From positions 1-41,640 of the IMG/VR virus record IMGVR_UViG_3300029913_000050: a DNA stretch of 41,640 bases; one strand, given 5' to 3'. How positions within the stretch are numbered: the first letter of the stretch is position 1; the number at the start of each line of letters is the position of its first letter. The notes beneath the pieces were generated by a model, which saw only the letters and a list, made by a program, of their open reading frames with translations, searched no databases and was not told the DNA's origin. Below, piece by piece: positions 7,163-14,135 of this stretch. Source of the stretch: a virus. The translations under genes and the position numbers were made by a program.

Positions 7163-8032
7163 TTATTTAAATTTGGCATTTAATCTACCAAGTATATTAT
7201 CTTTATATGATATTCTATATAAATCAATATTATTATTTAAACAAAAAATATTTTTAATTTCATCATTTTCTTTAGTATATTCAAGATTACCCCAATTAAG
7301 AACTTCTATAAAATGCTGAGCACCATCGAATTCTATACATAAATTATAATCAGGTAAATAAAAATCAAAAGATAATAATCTTTTATTCATACAACCTTCA
7401 AATTTTTTTTGTCTTTCAAAAATAATATCATGCTCTATTAGATAACTTTCTACCGCTCTTTCTCCTTTACTTTCATCACATAAAGGACAACCATTTCCTC
7501 TTAAATGATTATTTAATATTTGTTCAAATTCTCCATGTAAAGGACATATTATTTTTATTATATCCTTTGTTCTATTAAAAATAGACAATGAATAATCATA
7601 TTTATTATTATGAACTTTATTTAATTTATTTAAAATCGTTTTTTTATCTTTTTTATAATTTGGTGCACATTTTTGACAACCTTTACCTGCTAAATGATTA
7701 ATCACTTGTTGTTCAAATTCACCATGAATTTTACATATTATAGTAGAATTATTATACATACCAATATATTTAAATTTAGAATAATCATATCTATCTCCAT
7801 GTATTTTAGTACATCTATTTAATACAACTTTTTCATCTAATAATTTACCACATTTTTTACAACCATATCTCTTATGATTAAGAGGTTCTTGTTCAAATAT
7901 TCCATGTATTGGACAAATAATTTTTATTTTAGTATGAGCATTAATATATAAAACTAAACTATAATCATAATAATAATTATGTATTATTGAAACTTCTTTT
8001 ATATAATCATCTACATTTTTTACTTTGCTCAT
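7163..8032 (-). CDS. Homing endonuclease with three HG-F-type zinc repeats
   Basis: A 289-residue endonuclease-like protein. Three tandem modules of about 60 residues (roughly 9-65, 66-125, 128-187) each carry iHg/n-k-YDYS, then C-x2-HG-x-F, then H-x(3-5)-GC-x2-C, a Cys/His set fitting a DUF723-like zinc repeat. The C-terminal 100 residues look like a Vsr/PD-(D/E)XK-related nuclease: ERQKKFEGC, LSFDFYLPDYNLCIEFDG and QHF. The start overlaps the stop of the acidic-protein gene upstream (ATGA), so the two are translationally coupled. It lies just upstream of nrdJ and is a paralogue of the gene at 8758. Probably a selfish free-standing homing gene, though its cut site is unknown. Confidence 0.75.
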   Translation of the reverse strand: MSKVKNVDDYIKEVSIIHNYYYDYSLVLYINAHTKIKIICPIHGIFEQEPLNHKRYGCKKCGKLLDEKVVLNRCTKIHGDRYDYSKFKYIGMYNNSTIICKIHGEFEQQVINHLAGKGCQKCAPNYKKDKKTILNKLNKVHNNKYDYSLSIFNRTKDIIKIICPLHGEFEQILNNHLRGNGCPLCDESKGERAVESYLIEHDIIFERQKKFEGCMNKRLLSFDFYLPDYNLCIEFDGAQHFIEVLNWGNLEYTKENDEIKNIFCLNNNIDLYRISYKDNILGRLNAKFK

Positions 8033-8757: not shown

Positions 8758-9636
8758 TTATTTGAGAAATTCTAATTTCTCAATGATATTCTCATCATAT
8801 TTTATTCTTATTAATCTTATATTATTATTTAAGCAAAATTCATTTTTAATATTATCATTTTTATTTGTTTTAATTAAATTATCTTCTCCATATATTGGAC
8901 TATAATGCTGTATACCATCATATTCTATACATATATTATAATCTATTAGATAAAAATCAAAAGGTAATTTTTTATTATTTTTACATTTTTCAAATTTTTT
9001 TTGTCTTTCGTGTTTAATAAATTTATCAATTAATATATTTTCAATTTCAATCTCACCTTTAGATTCACTACACAGCGGGCAGCCATTAGCTTGATGTATA
9101 TGATTGTTCAATCTTTGATTAAATTTACCATGTTTTTTGCAATAAATAGTTAAAATAGTTTCATTCATTCTTTTATCTAACTCAAAATCATCATACTTAT
9201 ATTTAAAATTATGTATATTATTAGCTTTTTCTAATATTTCTTTTTTAGTATAAACATTATTTGCACATTTTGGACATCCATGGCCATTTAAATGTAGTTT
9301 AGTATTTTGTGAAAAATATCCATGTCTATCACAATAAATAATAATATCGCTACTATAATTAATAAAAATAGTTTTATCATATTTATATTTAAAATTATGA
9401 ATAATATTAACTTTTTCTATATAATTAATTGTAGTAAAATGATTATTTCCACATTCCGAGCATCCATGTCCATCCAAATGAGATTTAGCATTTTGAATAA
9501 ATTCTCCATGTTTAGGACATACAATTTTCACATAACAATCATTATTTATATAATTAGTATTTGGATAACTATAAAAATTATTATGAATTATATTTGATCT
9601 TTCTATAAATATATCATTAGTTAATCTTTTTCCCAT
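8758..9636 (-). CDS. Homing endonuclease, paralogue of the 7163 gene
   Basis: A 292-residue protein with the same plan as the endonuclease at 7163-8032. It has three zinc modules (C-x2-HG-x-F, then H-x-GC-x2-C, at about residues 10-63, 67-120 and 124-183) and a C-terminal Vsr/PD-(D/E)XK-like domain with ERQKKFEKC, LPFDFYLIDYNICIEYDG and QHY. The two copies clearly share ancestry but have diverged. It starts 6 bases after the stop of the helicase C-half, a typical site for a free-standing homing gene riding on a conserved replication gene. Activity is inferred from conserved motifs. Confidence 0.75.
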   Translation of the reverse strand: MGKRLTNDIFIERSNIIHNNFYSYPNTNYINNDCYVKIVCPKHGEFIQNAKSHLDGHGCSECGNNHFTTINYIEKVNIIHNFKYKYDKTIFINYSSDIIIYCDRHGYFSQNTKLHLNGHGCPKCANNVYTKKEILEKANNIHNFKYKYDDFELDKRMNETILTIYCKKHGKFNQRLNNHIHQANGCPLCSESKGEIEIENILIDKFIKHERQKKFEKCKNNKKLPFDFYLIDYNICIEYDGIQHYSPIYGEDNLIKTNKNDNIKNEFCLNNNIRLIRIKYDENIIEKLEFLK

Positions 9637-9642
9637 TTTTTA

Positions 9643-10731
9643 TTATTTAACTCCTACTAAAACATCATTCTCCATAGTTAAAAAATTTGTATTAAAATCA
9701 AATCTAACTTGTTCTTCATGATGTTCACCATCTCTTAACTTTAATATTTTTAATCTATAACTATTATTTCTTTTCATTTCGGGATTTCTTATGATCCCCC
9801 AGACTGAATCAGATGTATCTGCTATCGCTTTACTTTCAGGAATAGCATTAAGTGTAATATCAGAAGCACCCCAAACGCTCTTATCGGTTTGAGTTGCAGT
9901 TATAACTGCACATTCATACTTATCTGCTACACGTCTTAATCCTTCAGCTAAATGTTTACCTTTTAGGTAAAGCATATTAGTAATATCATAGCCTTTTTCA
10001 ATTGACATAATATTTATATAATCTACGATTACCATTCCAACTTTAATTCTTTTAACTTCTTCGAATTTTTTAATATAATTATCAATATCAGTAACAGTAC
10101 AATCACTGGTATTATATTTTTTAACAAATATTTTACCTGGTTGAGCATCGAATAAATTACCAACAGTTGATTGTGATTTAAGATTATTTAATTTTTGTTT
10201 CATGAAAACTGGATCTTTTGATTTTTCATCATACTCATCAGATTTAATTTTAAGTCTCATAGAACCTAATCTCTTCATTACTTTTCTTGTAGCCATCTCT
10301 AATGTAATAAGTAATACATTAGTACCAGCGTTTGCTGCATTAGTAGCTATATTATGTAACCACATTGAATTGTGGGATAAAATTCCATCTGAATAAAATC
10401 TATGATTATCATCAGATAATGATAAATCATACATATTAGATGATTTTTCTGTTTCATAAACTTCTGTCACATCACTTATACCATTTTTTGTTATTATTTT
10501 ATCTCCAATTTTCAAATATTTAACAAAAACTTCATTGAAATTTTCATCAAAAACAATATGAGTATCTGCGCATATCAAACTAAAATCATCCGATGTTTTT
10601 AATACCCACTCAACATATTCTATAGTCTTACCAATTTCTTTAATATCAGACCAACCATTATCAGTTTCAATTTCCCAATCTTCTACATCAAATGTTTCTA
10701 CAAATTTTTTATATATATTATCACTTATCAT
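9643..10731 (-). CDS. Replicative helicase (gp41/DnaB), C-terminal half fused to IntC
   Basis: The product has two parts. Residues 1-121 are the C-terminal piece of a split intein, with a block-B-like CADTHIVF, a Hint-type LKIGDKIITKNG, and the end block DNHRFYSDGILSHN. The extein starts at Ser122 and continues the RecA-like helicase core exactly after the P-loop: SMWLHNIA, then ITLEMA, Walker B MVIVDYINIM, and ATQTDKSVWG. The other half is the gene at 12105. The frame is open to a TTG at 10737, but ATG 10731 is preferred; it overlaps the end of the small ORF upstream by 11 bases. Joined to the N half, it should unwind DNA at the phage fork. Confidence 0.88.
   Translation of the reverse strand: MISDNIYKKFVETFDVEDWEIETDNGWSDIKEIGKTIEYVEWVLKTSDDFSLICADTHIVFDENFNEVFVKYLKIGDKIITKNGISDVTEVYETEKSSNMYDLSLSDDNHRFYSDGILSHNSMWLHNIATNAANAGTNVLLITLEMATRKVMKRLGSMRLKIKSDEYDEKSKDPVFMKQKLNNLKSQSTVGNLFDAQPGKIFVKKYNTSDCTVTDIDNYIKKFEEVKRIKVGMVIVDYINIMSIEKGYDITNMLYLKGKHLAEGLRRVADKYECAVITATQTDKSVWGASDITLNAIPESKAIADTSDSVWGIIRNPEMKRNNSYRLKILKLRDGEHHEEQVRFDFNTNFLTMENDVLVGVK
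10369..10731 (-). other. C-terminal fragment of an atypical split intein (IntC)
   Basis: About 121 residues before the conserved HN/Ser junction at 10366-10371. It holds all intein blocks except the N-terminal one, so the break lies just after block A rather than at the usual endonuclease position. The terminal HN and +1 Ser are present. AceL-TerL-like inteins split at the same place (from memory of that family). Confidence 0.85.
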
Positions 10732-10996
10732 ATTCAACTTCTTCCTTTTGTTTAAATTCTATATCATCATTATCATATAAAATATTATAAAACACTTCAA
10801 TTATTTTATCAGTTAATATTAAATTACCAATATATGTATCTCCAACAATTGATTGTTCTCCATCATATATTTCAAAATTATCAAATTGTTCTATTTTATC
10901 AGATAAATATTTTGATATATGTATTTCATCATATTCACCTACATTTTCTTCTATAAATTCTATTATATACTTTTCAAAATCACTCATATTAATCAT
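10721..10996 (-). CDS. Small acidic ORF in the helicase gap
   Basis: A 91-residue acidic protein (start MINMSDFEKYIIEFIEENVG, end EEVEYDK) between the endonuclease remnant and the IntC-helicase gene. It overlaps the gene on each side by a few bases (ATGATTAA upstream, 11 bases downstream), so the cluster is translated as a coupled unit. It has no visible intein block, zinc site or nuclease motif. It may be cargo of the homing element, an accessory to the split intein, or a host-interacting protein. It is not recognised. Confidence 0.55.
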   Translation of the reverse strand: MINMSDFEKYIIEFIEENVGEYDEIHISKYLSDKIEQFDNFEIYDGEQSIVGDTYIGNLILTDKIIEVFYNILYDNDDIEFKQKEEVEYDK

Positions 10997-11249
10997 TTTT
11001 TATAAAATCTATACATTGCTGTACAACTTTTTGTTTATTATTATTGTAATCATATTCCCAAATTATTAATGCTTTATAACCAAGTTTTTCAATTGAATCT
11101 ATTTTAATTTTATCATAATTCCATATATCTTTTGCAAACATTTGTTTACTTTTATTAAAAAAATCTTCTTTATAAATTAAAGGATTGCAATGCCAATAAT
11201 CACCATTAAATTCTATAACCTTTTTTTTTACAAACAAAATCATATGCAA
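10989..11249 (-). CDS. EDxHD/Vsr-like endonuclease, C-terminal part (frameshifted)
   Basis: This 86-residue frame carries the catalytic part of the endonuclease that begins in the gene at 11206-12102. After the A-run it reads VIEFNGDYWHCNP, the E-x(n)-GD-x-WH signature of the Vsr-like EDxHD homing nucleases, and then IWNYD, GYKALIIWEYDY and a helical end. It is in the +1 frame relative to the N-terminal part. The two frames overlap over a run of nine A (coding strand, 11221-11229); eight A would fuse them into one protein of about 370 residues. It therefore probably belongs to a broken or frameshift-expressed gene, not an independent one, even though an ATG exists at 11249. Confidence 0.65.
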   Translation of the reverse strand: MHMILFVKKKVIEFNGDYWHCNPLIYKEDFFNKSKQMFAKDIWNYDKIKIDSIEKLGYKALIIWEYDYNNNKQKVVQQCIDFIKND

Positions 11250-12102
11250 ATGTTTTACCTATATCTTTAATATATCTATAAAATTGATTATCACCAAAAT
11301 AAAATTTATCAAAATTTTTAGAAACTTCAGAAAATAATTCTATTTCACTATTAGAATATGGTTCTTTTCTAAATTTTACGAAAAGTCCATCTTTATACAT
11401 AATTTCAATTTTTTCACTCCAATTTTTTTGTCTTTCAGTCCAAATATTCAATCCTTCAGATTTACCATATTTTTGAATACATTTTTCAATTGTAAATGTT
11501 TTCTGTCTCTCTTTTATTTTATATTCTGATTCTTCTTGTGAATATCCTTTTTTTAACCAATATCCTATTTGAGTAGTATTAACATCTTGATATAATTCTG
11601 GATTTTCTCTACGTTTTTTCCATGTTTTAGTATGAATATCATCAAAAGATTTTTTGACTTCTATTTCAGAATCTTCTTGTGAATATCCTTTTTTTAGCCA
11701 ATATTCAACGCATTGTCTGGATTTTTCTTTAAAAAAATTTTCGTTTTTTTCAAAACTTTTTTGTAATCCATTTTTAGTTTTTATACTATTATCTTTAATT
11801 CTACTATTTAATAATTTGATTGAATCTATTTCAGATAAATTATATTTATACATTAAAAATTCATATGTAGCTGTTGCTCTAGTTTTACCTAAACATATTT
11901 TAGAATTACATATTCTATGATATCCATTTGTAATATTTTTAAAAATTGCTTCTTCTCCGCAGAAATAACAAATACCTTCATTTTCATCTTTTAAATATTC
12001 ATCATAATATTCTTTTTTAATTATTTCGTTATGATATTTCGTTAAATGAATAGACAAACCTTTAGTAGTATCAAATTCTTTTCCGCATATTTCACATTTC
12101 AT
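11206..12102 (-). CDS. EDxHD/Vsr-like homing endonuclease, N-terminal part (frameshifted)
   Basis: A 298-residue frame between the two helicase halves. It starts with a C2H2-like finger (CEICGKEF then HLTKYH, residues 3-24), a second Cys pair (CYFCG) with later Cys, and two nearly identical DNA-binding-type modules, YWLKKGYSQEDSE and YWLKKGYSQEESE, each followed by a charged helix. It ends at the fold entry FAYDFVCKKK, then goes out of frame at nine A; the catalytic residues lie in the next frame (10989-11249). It starts 2 bases after the stop of the helicase N-half. The arrangement matches the 'fractured gene' pattern, in which a split intein brackets a Vsr-like endonuclease gene. As written, the protein would be inactive unless frameshifting occurs. 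Confidence 0.75.
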   Translation of the reverse strand: MKCEICGKEFDTTKGLSIHLTKYHNEIIKKEYYDEYLKDENEGICYFCGEEAIFKNITNGYHRICNSKICLGKTRATATYEFLMYKYNLSEIDSIKLLNSRIKDNSIKTKNGLQKSFEKNENFFKEKSRQCVEYWLKKGYSQEDSEIEVKKSFDDIHTKTWKKRRENPELYQDVNTTQIGYWLKKGYSQEESEYKIKERQKTFTIEKCIQKYGKSEGLNIWTERQKNWSEKIEIMYKDGLFVKFRKEPYSNSEIELFSEVSKNFDKFYFGDNQFYRYIKDIGKTFAYDFVCKKKGYRI

Positions 12103-12104
12103 TT

Positions 12105-12824
12105 TTATATTTTATTTTTAATTGAATCATAAAAATCCCCTATACTAATTTCTTCTATTTTTCCTGTTTTTTTATTTCTAATTTTTATAAATGTCTGATA
12201 ATGAGAGCATTTACCAACATTAGTTTCCCCCATAATAACATTTAACGTTGATTTACTCCATCCTCCTCCTAAAATATTATCTATACATGGCCATCCTGAA
12301 GGTATACAATTTTTAGAAATCATTTGTTTATGAGATTCAGGGTCATCAAAATCAGATCCTAAATCGTTATCATCATCATCAACTAAAAGTACGTTACCAA
12401 ACATACCTTTCATTTTTTGGGCAATTTCGAGAGCATTATCATAATTTACATCTTCTATACCTCGGACCATATCAATACTTTTTAGTACATCGCCTTTTAA
12501 TTGGTTTTGAATTTTCCAACCTTTGAACATTGGTAATAACCATTCAGGGCTAAACTCGCTATTATCAGATTGAAGAAGCATTTTTATTACTTTATCATTT
12601 ACTTTATTATCTGAATCAGCCAATTTAACCATTGAATAGATTTGCTTAATGCTTGGTACTGTATGACTATCGCTTTTAATATATTCTTCTCTTATTACAG
12701 TATAAATGAATTGAATATCCGAATTTCTAAAGAAAAAAGGATCTACTTTTGAAAATTGATCAGGATTGTCCAAAATGTGAACGAAATAATGTCGTTCCAT
12801 ATTTGTGTTTGTTGTATCTGCCAT
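12105..12824 (-). CDS. Replicative helicase (gp41/DnaB), N-terminal half fused to IntN
   Basis: A 239-residue product. Residues 1-205 are the helical N-terminal domain and the start of the RecA core of a DnaB/gp41 helicase, ending precisely in the P-loop GETNVGK (199-205). Residue 206 is Cys, the first residue of an intein, and the last 34 residues form a short N-terminal intein fragment ending DFYDSIKNKI. The partner begins at 10731. Alone this protein lacks the P-loop Ser, Walker B and DNA-binding loops, so it cannot be an active helicase without trans-splicing. A start at ATG 12824 fits the family. It lies 66 bases downstream of uvsX. Confidence 0.88.
   Translation of the reverse strand: MADTTNTNMERHYFVHILDNPDQFSKVDPFFFRNSDIQFIYTVIREEYIKSDSHTVPSIKQIYSMVKLADSDNKVNDKVIKMLLQSDNSEFSPEWLLPMFKGWKIQNQLKGDVLKSIDMVRGIEDVNYDNALEIAQKMKGMFGNVLLVDDDDNDLGSDFDDPESHKQMISKNCIPSGWPCIDNILGGGWSKSTLNVIMGETNVGKCSHYQTFIKIRNKKTGKIEEISIGDFYDSIKNKI
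12108..12209 (-). other. N-terminal fragment of an atypical split intein (IntN)
   Basis: Starts at Cys (codon 12207-12209) directly after P-loop GETNVGK and ends 34 residues later at a TAA. It contains only the block-A-like strand pair and GKIEEISIGDFYDSI, so the split comes very early. Canonical split inteins have an IntN of about 90-100 residues. Confidence 0.85.
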
Positions 12825-12890: not shown

Positions 12891-14135
12891 TTAAGTAAAT
12901 AATGTATCATCTGAATCAATATCGAATTCTTCGGAAGTTAGCATATCTTTATCTTCTAATTCGTTCAATCTTTCATCAATTTCATCTAATTCTTTCATAC
13001 ATTCTTCATATGATGGATATTTAAAATAATCATAAATTATTGGGTCCATTTTTTCTAATACTTCTTGCGTAAATACTTTTCTATTAAATAATTGAGCAGT
13101 AGCGACTGCTTTATCTAAATGTTTAACATACCATCTATTAGATGATTGATAAGTTATTTCTCCTGTTTCTTTATTTACAACTGGTTTAACTTTTGCAATT
13201 CCAATTTTATCAAAATTTTCAGGTGTACAAAACAGATCTAAACCTTTAAATGGATTAATACCTTTTGTATGATCAATTTCGAATTTAACTTTCTTAGGTT
13301 TAGCTAATCTATTTTTACCTGCTTTTGCAGTAATAATAGAACCAGAGCGTCCAAGATCCATTTCATCTTCTTCTCCAGTTTTCAATTTTGCATCACTTAA
13401 AAATACTATACTACTAGCTGCATAATACAAGCCTTCTCCACCTGACATGATAGTTTGAGGAAACATATCTTGAGTTAAATAAATATGATTCGTTGCTACA
13501 AGAGGTATTGACAAATATCCTAAGTCATTTGTTATAAGTCTAACAAGAGATTTTATTTGTTTTGCACGTGTCATATCTTGTTTAATATCTAATTTAAGAG
13601 TATCAGCCTTTTCTTTTTCTGATGATAGCATACCAATTGAATCTAAAAAGAAAATTGTTTTAGAAACATCCATACCTTTTTCTTTTAATTTTGTCATATC
13701 ATCTAGCATAGAAGTCATAAACATTTTAATTTTTTCTACTATATTAGTTCTAATTAACATAAATTTATTAGAATCTGATGTATCAATTCCATACATATCA
13801 AAATCTGATTTTTCAATAGAAAATTCAGTATCAATCCATATAATATTATATCCTAATTTTTGAGCATTTCTAGCTATGTTTAGAGAAAGAAACGATTTAC
13901 CTGTTTGTTTTGGCCCAGCCAACAGTGTTATTCTATTATTAGATATACCTCCATGTAAAATACTTTTAGATAATAACGCATCTAAAATATACACTCCAGT
14001 TGAAATAAAACTTTTTTCTTTTTCAAAATCTTCAATTGAAATAATTTCTTTTTTTGACATAGTATCAATCAATCCAGAAATATTCGAAAAATCAAAACTA
14101 TTTTTTTGTGAAGTTTGTGTGGTTTTTTTTGCCAT
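12891..14135 (-). CDS. uvsX: UvsX-like RecA recombinase
   Basis: A 414-residue RecA-family strand-exchange protein of the T4 UvsX type, which coats single-stranded DNA and drives recombination-dependent replication and repair. Walker A is GPKQTGKS (74-81), followed by IIWIDTEFS, the Walker-B-like FFLDSIGML, and the ATNHIY and TIMSGGEGLYY segments that match the RecA core. The C-terminus is acidic and ends DSDDTLFT, as in many single-strand-binding or recombinase tails. It is the first gene of the leftward replication block and is divergent from the baseplate cluster. Length and motif order fit the family with nothing missing. Confidence 0.93.
   Translation of the reverse strand: MAKKTTQTSQKNSFDFSNISGLIDTMSKKEIISIEDFEKEKSFISTGVYILDALLSKSILHGGISNNRITLLAGPKQTGKSFLSLNIARNAQKLGYNIIWIDTEFSIEKSDFDMYGIDTSDSNKFMLIRTNIVEKIKMFMTSMLDDMTKLKEKGMDVSKTIFFLDSIGMLSSEKEKADTLKLDIKQDMTRAKQIKSLVRLITNDLGYLSIPLVATNHIYLTQDMFPQTIMSGGEGLYYAASSIVFLSDAKLKTGEEDEMDLGRSGSIITAKAGKNRLAKPKKVKFEIDHTKGINPFKGLDLFCTPENFDKIGIAKVKPVVNKETGEITYQSSNRWYVKHLDKAVATAQLFNRKVFTQEVLEKMDPIIYDYFKYPSYEECMKELDEIDERLNELEDKDMLTSEEFDIDSDDTLFT

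What the first reader, a model, noticed from the sequence alone, without database searches (positions are those of the whole stretch)
9643..12824. Replicative helicase split by an atypical trans-splicing intein with a very short IntN
The P-loop of a gp41/DnaB helicase is cut after GETNVGK. The upstream gene ends in a 34-residue intein fragment starting with Cys. The downstream gene begins with about 121 residues carrying the remaining intein blocks, ends ILSHN and resumes the helicase at Ser. Most split inteins break near the endonuclease site (IntN about 90-100); here the break is right after block A, as in the rare AceL-TerL-like type. The gap holds a Vsr-like endonuclease gene and a small ORF, matching the known 'fractured gene' plan. 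Phage replication would depend on trans-splicing.
Basis: partly seen in the sequence, partly recalled or inferred. Interest (0 to 1): 0.9.

Follow-up and report, generated by a model that had tools for sequence, protein, structure and literature searches.

The report
Split intein in phage helicase P-loop
A phage's replicative helicase is encoded as two separate genes that a self-splicing protein element must rejoin, and related elements sit at the same ATP-binding motif in several quite different phage motor proteins.

Summary
The N gene (12105-12824, minus) is helicase ending GETNVGK plus a 34-aa IntN; the C gene (9643-10737, minus) is a 123-aa IntC ending SHN plus helicase from Ser. The halves meet in the DnaB-like helicase family. 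Of 47 helicase records compared, 26 are uninterrupted at exactly that codon and 21 split. The IntC family profile finds VidaL, gp41-1 and Cat inteins; a fused 153-aa relative folds as an intein (pLDDT 93, VidaL Z 21.8) and puts the break after the first helix, a known atypical position. No second helicase was found in a 111-kb contig with the identical locus. The gap's endonuclease is frameshifted here but open in relatives. The window is a new member of a known kind. Less ordinary: all 114 distinct close relatives examined precede Ser/Thr, and 98 of 98 with a recognised IntN follow Gly-Lys: the Walker A of helicases, terminases, SbcC, Clp ATPases and a clamp loader. Intein and helicase trees disagree, so the element moves. 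Splicing was not tested.

The parts
12210..12824 (-). Helicase N-terminal extein, 205 aa, ends ...GETNVGK (first part of Walker A)
   Evidence: phrog_19 E 1.4e-16 to column 366; 94% identical to intein-free L024
12108..12209 (-). IntN, 34 aa, Cys1, followed by TAA stop (12105-12107)
   Evidence: Aligned with 13 other IntN; a matching IntN in each of the split helicase loci L003-L013 except L006, whose contig lacks that side
11206..12102 (-). Endonuclease gene, 5' frame (298 aa; N-terminal C2H2-type zinc finger, sub-threshold)
   Evidence: Open together with the next piece in relatives, e.g. L003; Pfam zf-C2H2_4 E 0.0011, below cut-off
10989..11249 (-). Endonuclease gene, 3' frame (86 aa; IEFNGDYWHCNP stretch), displaced by a frameshift at the A9 run (plus strand 11221-11229)
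   Evidence: phrog_22677 E 3.1e-14, homing endonuclease phrog_3339 E 4.9e-5; comparison with relatives
10721..10996 (-). Small ORF, 91 aa, unknown, seen only in copies of this same locus
   Evidence: No family hit; tblastn hits only in identical loci
10369..10737 (-). IntC, 123 aa from TTG (121 from ATG 10731), ends SHN
   Evidence: Alignment A1; profile hits in the PDB: VidaL E 3.9e-10, gp41-1 2.3e-9, CatC 5.6e-6
9643..10368 (-). Helicase C-terminal extein from Ser+1 (241 aa and stop)
   Evidence: phrog_19 E 1.9e-41 from column 368, Pfam DnaB_C E 8.1e-16

Best explanation
This is a class-1 split intein of the atypical (S2) type that interrupts the replicative helicase between Lys and Ser of Walker A, together with a now frameshifted homing-type endonuclease gene in the gap. 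N-helicase-IntN (net charge +3 on IntN) and IntC-helicase-C (net -16 on IntC) are made as separate proteins; IntN docks onto IntC and completes the intein fold; Cys1, the block B and F histidines, the terminal His-Asn and Ser+1 would carry out N-to-S shift, transesterification and Asn cyclisation, leaving GETNVGK-SMWL, the sequence that intein-free relatives encode directly. The endonuclease would have spread the element by cutting empty helicase alleles. Shown: anatomy, conserved residues, the empty site, sporadic distribution, family fold. Inferred: splicing, cleavage, homing.
For: Halves abut in the helicase family. 26 empty and 21 split records are intermixed on the helicase tree: 8 changes of state, at least 6 forced by starred branches. 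The window copy is nested with eight empty relatives (helicase 91-94% identical), yet its IntC groups with L011/L013 (100/87), whose helicase N parts are only 45-46% identical while IntC is 65-70%: the intein has its own history. Median dN/dS: IntC 0.255, IntN 0.349, against HelC 0.198, HelN 0.309, EndoA 0.506, EndoB 0.369. IntC profile finds VidaL, gp41-1, CatC, NrdJ-1 in the PDB. Fused relative L131 (153 aa): pLDDT 93.2; VidaL Z 21.8, 1.4 A over 137 residues; its least confident block (residues 31-40, mean 69) is where the window is split: window IntN aligns without gaps to residue 31. No other helicase in 10 records, one of 111 kb with this very locus.
Against: No splicing or expression data. 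The records are metagenome contigs; completeness was given for none of the 10. Synonymous sites are near saturation (median dS 0.63-1.20 over pairs with dS 0.05-2; the other pairs were dropped), so dN/dS is rough, and single pairs reach 1.16 for IntN. The window's IntC alone is below Pfam's intein cut-off (E 0.044), although 17 of 18 family members match that model at E up to 1. Endonuclease nature rests on profile hits to phage families and weak Pfam hits; no PDB hit. The fold model is of a family member, not of the window's own pair.
Confidence: 0.92

Rival explanations
1. The split intein has been domesticated as an expression or assembly switch: the ATPase stays inactive until both halves are made and spliced, and the element is kept for that benefit rather than by homing.
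For: Endonuclease is frameshifted in the window and reduced or absent in several split relatives: remnants in L008 and L012, no profile hit in 9 gaps under 700 bases, while IntN and IntC stay constrained in the helicase set. Walker A is completed only by splicing.
Against: 26 relatives do without any intein; the patchy distribution and mismatched trees are those of a mobile element. A split intein also cannot easily be lost without a precise deletion, so retention needs no benefit (inference).
Confidence: 0.15
2. The two halves work, or are tolerated, without splicing (non-covalent complementation), or the gene is dead and the host helicase serves.
For: No splicing data exist for this pair.
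Against: Without splicing no polypeptide has a full Walker A; the helicase halves stay constrained, and Cys1 and the terminal SHN are invariant in the aligned family.
Confidence: 0.04
3. Assembly artefact joining two genotypes.
For: Metagenomic source.
Against: Identical arrangement in two further contigs (L001, L002) and the same layout in diverged loci.
Confidence: 0.01

Closest known systems
AceL-TerL and GOS-TerL atypical split inteins (and engineered Cat)
   Same: Short IntN (25 and 37 aa; here 34), break after the first helix (S2), large IntC, phage ATPase host; CatC is a PDB profile hit (E 5.6e-6). IntN sizes and split sites from passages of PMC13014065 and PMC11766414.
   Different: Those are in terminase with Cys+1; here a helicase at Walker A with Ser+1.
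VidaL split intein, PDB 6VGV
   Same: Top PDB sequence hit and top Foldseek match, tied first by VIA-align; short IntN. That its host is a T4-like helicase (VidaL T4Lh-1) is recalled, not checked.
   Different: IntN 16 aa, break after strand beta2 (S1) rather than after helix 1.
gp41-1 and other 'fractured genes' (Dassa et al. 2009, PMC2677866, not held; content recalled, only its citation seen)
   Same: Phage replication genes split by a split intein with a free endonuclease gene between the halves (recalled); gp41-1 is a profile hit.
   Different: gp41-1 has a canonical break, long IntN and short IntC (recalled).
P-loop terminase inteins: mycobacteriophage TerL1-a (PMC5050341 passages); Klebsiella phage Magnus TerL intein (MN045230)
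   Same: Insertion between Lys and Thr of Walker A. The Magnus intein matches this family's IntC profile at E 1.6e-32.
   Different: In terminase; the Magnus intein is contiguous (annotated 159-aa mat_peptide).

Membership tests
Intein (HINT splicing domain, class 1) | Nucleophile at position 1, block B His, terminal His-Asn, Ser/Thr/Cys at +1 | tested here: met
   Cys1 in 14 of 14 aligned IntN; His60 and SHN in 18 of 18 aligned IntC; Ser+1 in the window
Intein (HINT splicing domain, class 1) | HINT fold | tested here: met
   Contiguous family member L131: pLDDT 93.2, VidaL Z 21.8 and other inteins at Z 15-22. The window pair itself was not folded
Intein (HINT splicing domain, class 1) | Excision and ligation of exteins | not testable with these tools
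   Needs protein; only the empty-site sequence shows what the product would be
Atypical split intein, S2 position | IntN 15-37 aa, break after first helix | tested here: met
   34 aa; window IGDFYDSIK aligns ungapped with residues 23-31 of L131, the model's helix. MAFFT had misplaced the second half of the IntN rows, so that alignment was not used. Definition
Fractured gene with homing endonuclease | Endonuclease gene between the halves | tested here: met
   49 of 61 split loci with a readable IntN have an endonuclease-profile hit in the gap, five of them partial or weak (L008, L012, L083, L097, L122); 12 have none; window copy frameshifted
Vsr-like (EDxHD) homing endonuclease | Vsr/PDDEXK-type catalytic domain | tested here: inconclusive
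   Pfam MTES_1575 E 0.0023 (window), 0.0061 and 0.035 (two of three relatives), all under cut-off; no PDB match to a Vsr-type nuclease
gp41/DnaB-like replicative helicase | Family profile across both halves, Walker A at junction | tested here: met
   phrog_19, DnaB_C; GETNVGK-S

The most novel reading that the evidence does not exclude
One lineage of mostly split inteins, travelling with its own endonuclease, is addressed to the Walker A Gly-Lys|Ser/Thr of P-loop ATPases as such rather than to one gene: it has colonised phage replicative helicases, terminases, SbcC-like nucleases, both ATPase domains of Clp-like unfoldases and a clamp loader, and has jumped between Walker A sites, even within one gene (L186, L201: Clp-like gene in three pieces, whose first-domain inteins nest among second-domain inteins). 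Endonuclease erosion and loss, minimal splits (8-39 base gaps) and contiguous forms such as L131 would be stages of one life cycle.
Probability: 0.75. Interest if true: 0.72.

Novelty: new member of a known kind. Interest (0 to 1): 0.6.

Why it matters
The window gives a clean natural system for trans-splicing: closely related phages with and without the element at the same codon, so the cost of depending on trans-splicing for replication can be measured. The clade offers many short-IntN split inteins whose native junction is GK|S/T, pairs that should be orthogonal within one protein (L186, L201; untested), and a case in which a selfish element's target seems to be a functional motif shared by unrelated genes, which bears on why inteins cluster in ATP-binding sites.

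Tried and rejected
Second helicase: PF03796 in the window's own record and phrog_19 in 10 related records found only the helicase (two halves, or the intact gene) and weak UvsX P-loop matches.

Programmed frameshifting in the endonuclease: the frame needed at the A9 run is not the one a -1 slip would give (my reading), and relatives have it open, so I take it as decay; not tested.

Alternative genetic code joining the frames: in several loci the N and C frames coincide, but the N gene ends in ordinary stops (TAA 17, TAG 1, TGA 1 of the 19 loci) and the frames differ in the window.

Number of jumps between ATPases: the extein label needs 8 changes on the IntC tree of 73 (one row, L049, was mislabelled TerL there; it is SbcC-like) and 10 on a quick tree of 98 joined IntN+IntC. 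Most forks are weak, helicase inteins as one clade were not rejected (p-AU 0.141), and starred branches alone force at most 2 changes per label, so the number is uncertain. AU tests for SbcC, Clp and for the split state did not finish. Extein labels are by flanking motif; profile checks covered 27 pieces, some overlapping.

Limits of the Walker A count: one search kept the best 80 of 478 relatives and the best 80 of 403, so the nearer part of the family is covered. The E 1e-30 cut was chosen after seeing a first table. Five partial hits were dropped. For 16 of the 114 no IntN was recognised, so only the +1 side is known. The 21 less related distinct IntC have Cys (13), Ser (5) or Thr (3) at +1; their GK pairing is not meaningful, because the script takes the best IntN within 4.5 kb and several terminases hold two or three inteins.

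Endonuclease profile against the PDB: two chance-level hits only. Vibrio phage vB_VmeM-32 has an interrupted helicase, but at G|TGKS with a distant intein (E 5e-4), so not the same site.

Literature: Dassa 2009, Bachmann and Mootz 2015 and Burton 2020 are not held; their content is recalled or from citing passages. Searches listed no title or abstract start on a Walker-A-restricted split-intein family, in an open-licence library only.
Full report
What is there. On the minus strand the order is UvsX (12891-14135), helicase N half with IntN (12105-12824), endonuclease in two frames (11206-12102, 10989-11249), a 91-aa ORF (10721-10996), IntC with helicase C half (9643-10737). The N half matches the DnaB-like helicase family phrog_19 up to column 366, the C half from column 368. 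The cut lies between Lys and Ser of Walker A, GETNVGK|SMWL.

The empty site exists. Scans of viral contigs with both genes brought in relatives with and without the interruption. Of 47 helicase records compared (39 distinct proteins), 26 are uninterrupted with zero extra bases at the junction and 21 are split, one of them (L006) judged from its C side alone. On the helicase tree the two states need 8 changes, at least 6 of them forced by starred branches. The window's copy (L001 is identical) sits next to eight uninterrupted copies that are 91-94% identical, whereas its IntC is closest on the tree to those of L011 and L013, in helicases whose N halves are 45-46% identical. Among the 12 split relatives compared, IntC is 64-75% identical to the window's while the helicase N half, where held, ranges from 43% to 80%. 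That is the mark of horizontal movement.

It is an intein. Eighteen aligned IntC keep the block B His and the terminal SHN; fourteen aligned IntN begin with Cys. The IntC profile finds VidaL, gp41-1, CatC and NrdJ-1 among solved structures, and 17 of 18 members match the Pfam intein model at E up to 1, the window's own only at 0.044. L131 is a natural contiguous 153-aa member; its model (pLDDT 93.2) superposes on VidaL (Z 21.8) and many other inteins. Its least confident block (31-40) follows the helix at residues 23-31; the window's IntN aligns ungapped with L131 to residue 31 and ends at 34. That is the S2 split site of AceL-TerL and GOS-TerL; natural atypical IntN lengths are given as 15-37 aa (PMC13014065, passages).

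The gap. A profile of the endonuclease C-terminal part hits 49 of 61 gaps, including four remnants (L008, L012, L083, L097) and one weak hit (L122); nine gaps under 700 bases and three longer ones have no hit. Some splits are minimal: from the end of the IntN frame to the start of the IntC match are 8 bases in L088, 19 in L049, 27 in L095, 39 in L147. In the window the gene is frameshifted at an A9 run, identically in L001 and L002. The helicase-borne endonucleases have an N-terminal zinc-finger-like motif and an IEFNGDYWHCNP-like stretch, but 'Vsr-like' stays unproven.

Function under constraint. Median dN/dS is 0.255 for IntC and 0.349 for IntN, near the helicase halves (0.198, 0.309) and below EndoA (0.506); saturation makes this rough. 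No further helicase was found in ten records, among them a 111-kb contig holding this locus; none is known to be complete.

The wider family. Two profile-guided scans of viral contigs and one of genomes, added, gave 210 IntC hits, 135 distinct, 114 of them at E below 1e-30. All 114 are followed by Ser (42) or Thr (72). In 98 an IntN was recognised upstream; all 98 start with Cys and all 98 are preceded by Gly-Lys, which the script did not require. Four of the 98 are contiguous (L104, L116, L131, L191), the rest split. Labels by flanking motif for the 98: terminase 40, helicase 20, SbcC-like 20, AAA+ 18; representatives were checked by profile: phrog_77 SbcC-like, phrog_2 terminase, phrog_4871 and Pfam AAA_2/ClpB_D2-small, and a Gp44 clamp-loader lid for L202 alone. 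Of the 21 less related distinct IntC, 13 have Cys+1, several of them in the same terminases at other sites, so the site goes with the lineage. Across the 98 junctions the only DNA bases shared by all are the two G and two A of the Gly-Lys codons, with near-fixed C at the second base of the next codon, no more than the codons require. L186 and L201 have one split intein in each of the two ATPase domains of a Clp-like protein, and the first-domain inteins fall inside a starred group of second-domain ones (quick tree). L044, L111 and L123 have two or three inteins in one terminase. Cultured relatives exist: 320 phage records match IntC at E up to 1e-3; Klebsiella phage Magnus carries a contiguous, depositor-annotated intein at ARQSGK|T of its terminase.

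How novel. Insertion between Lys and Thr of a P-loop is described as classic (PMC5050341 passages), about 70% of inteins are said to lie in ATP-binding domains (PMC10663303 passages), and short-IntN split inteins and fractured phage genes are known. The window is therefore a new member of a known kind. The restriction of one large split-intein lineage to Walker A across at least five ATPase families was not seen in the listings of four searches of an open-licence library that lacks key intein papers.

Noticed in passing
L004, L007, L010, L020, L035: UvsX of related phages is interrupted before TQ(D/E)M (end of insert ...SHN|TQ) by a different intein; the window's UvsX (12891-14135) is intact.
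   Followed up: partly
L186, L201: Clp-like unfoldase gene broken into three pieces by two split inteins, one in each Walker A (domains checked for L186).
   Followed up: partly
L044/L046, L111, L123/L126, L147: Terminase genes with two or three intein C parts; the extra ones have Cys+1, some by a Walker-B-like LDEFA.
   Followed up: no
KU160494 (L150, L152): Cultured Vibrio phage vB_VmeM-32 has intein parts in helicase, UvsX and terminase; the helicase C piece carries no annotation.
   Followed up: partly
window 8758-9636 and 7163-8032: Two related free-standing endonuclease-like genes (phrog_559) downstream of the helicase, 46% identical as seen in the identical locus L001.
   Followed up: no
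window 10721-10996: 91-aa ORF between endonuclease and IntC gene, matched only in copies of this locus; its end overlaps the IntC start.
   Followed up: partly
L143, L144, L145, L051: Terminase-type C halves whose IntC frames begin with extra N-terminal stretches and for which no IntN was recognised.
   Followed up: no
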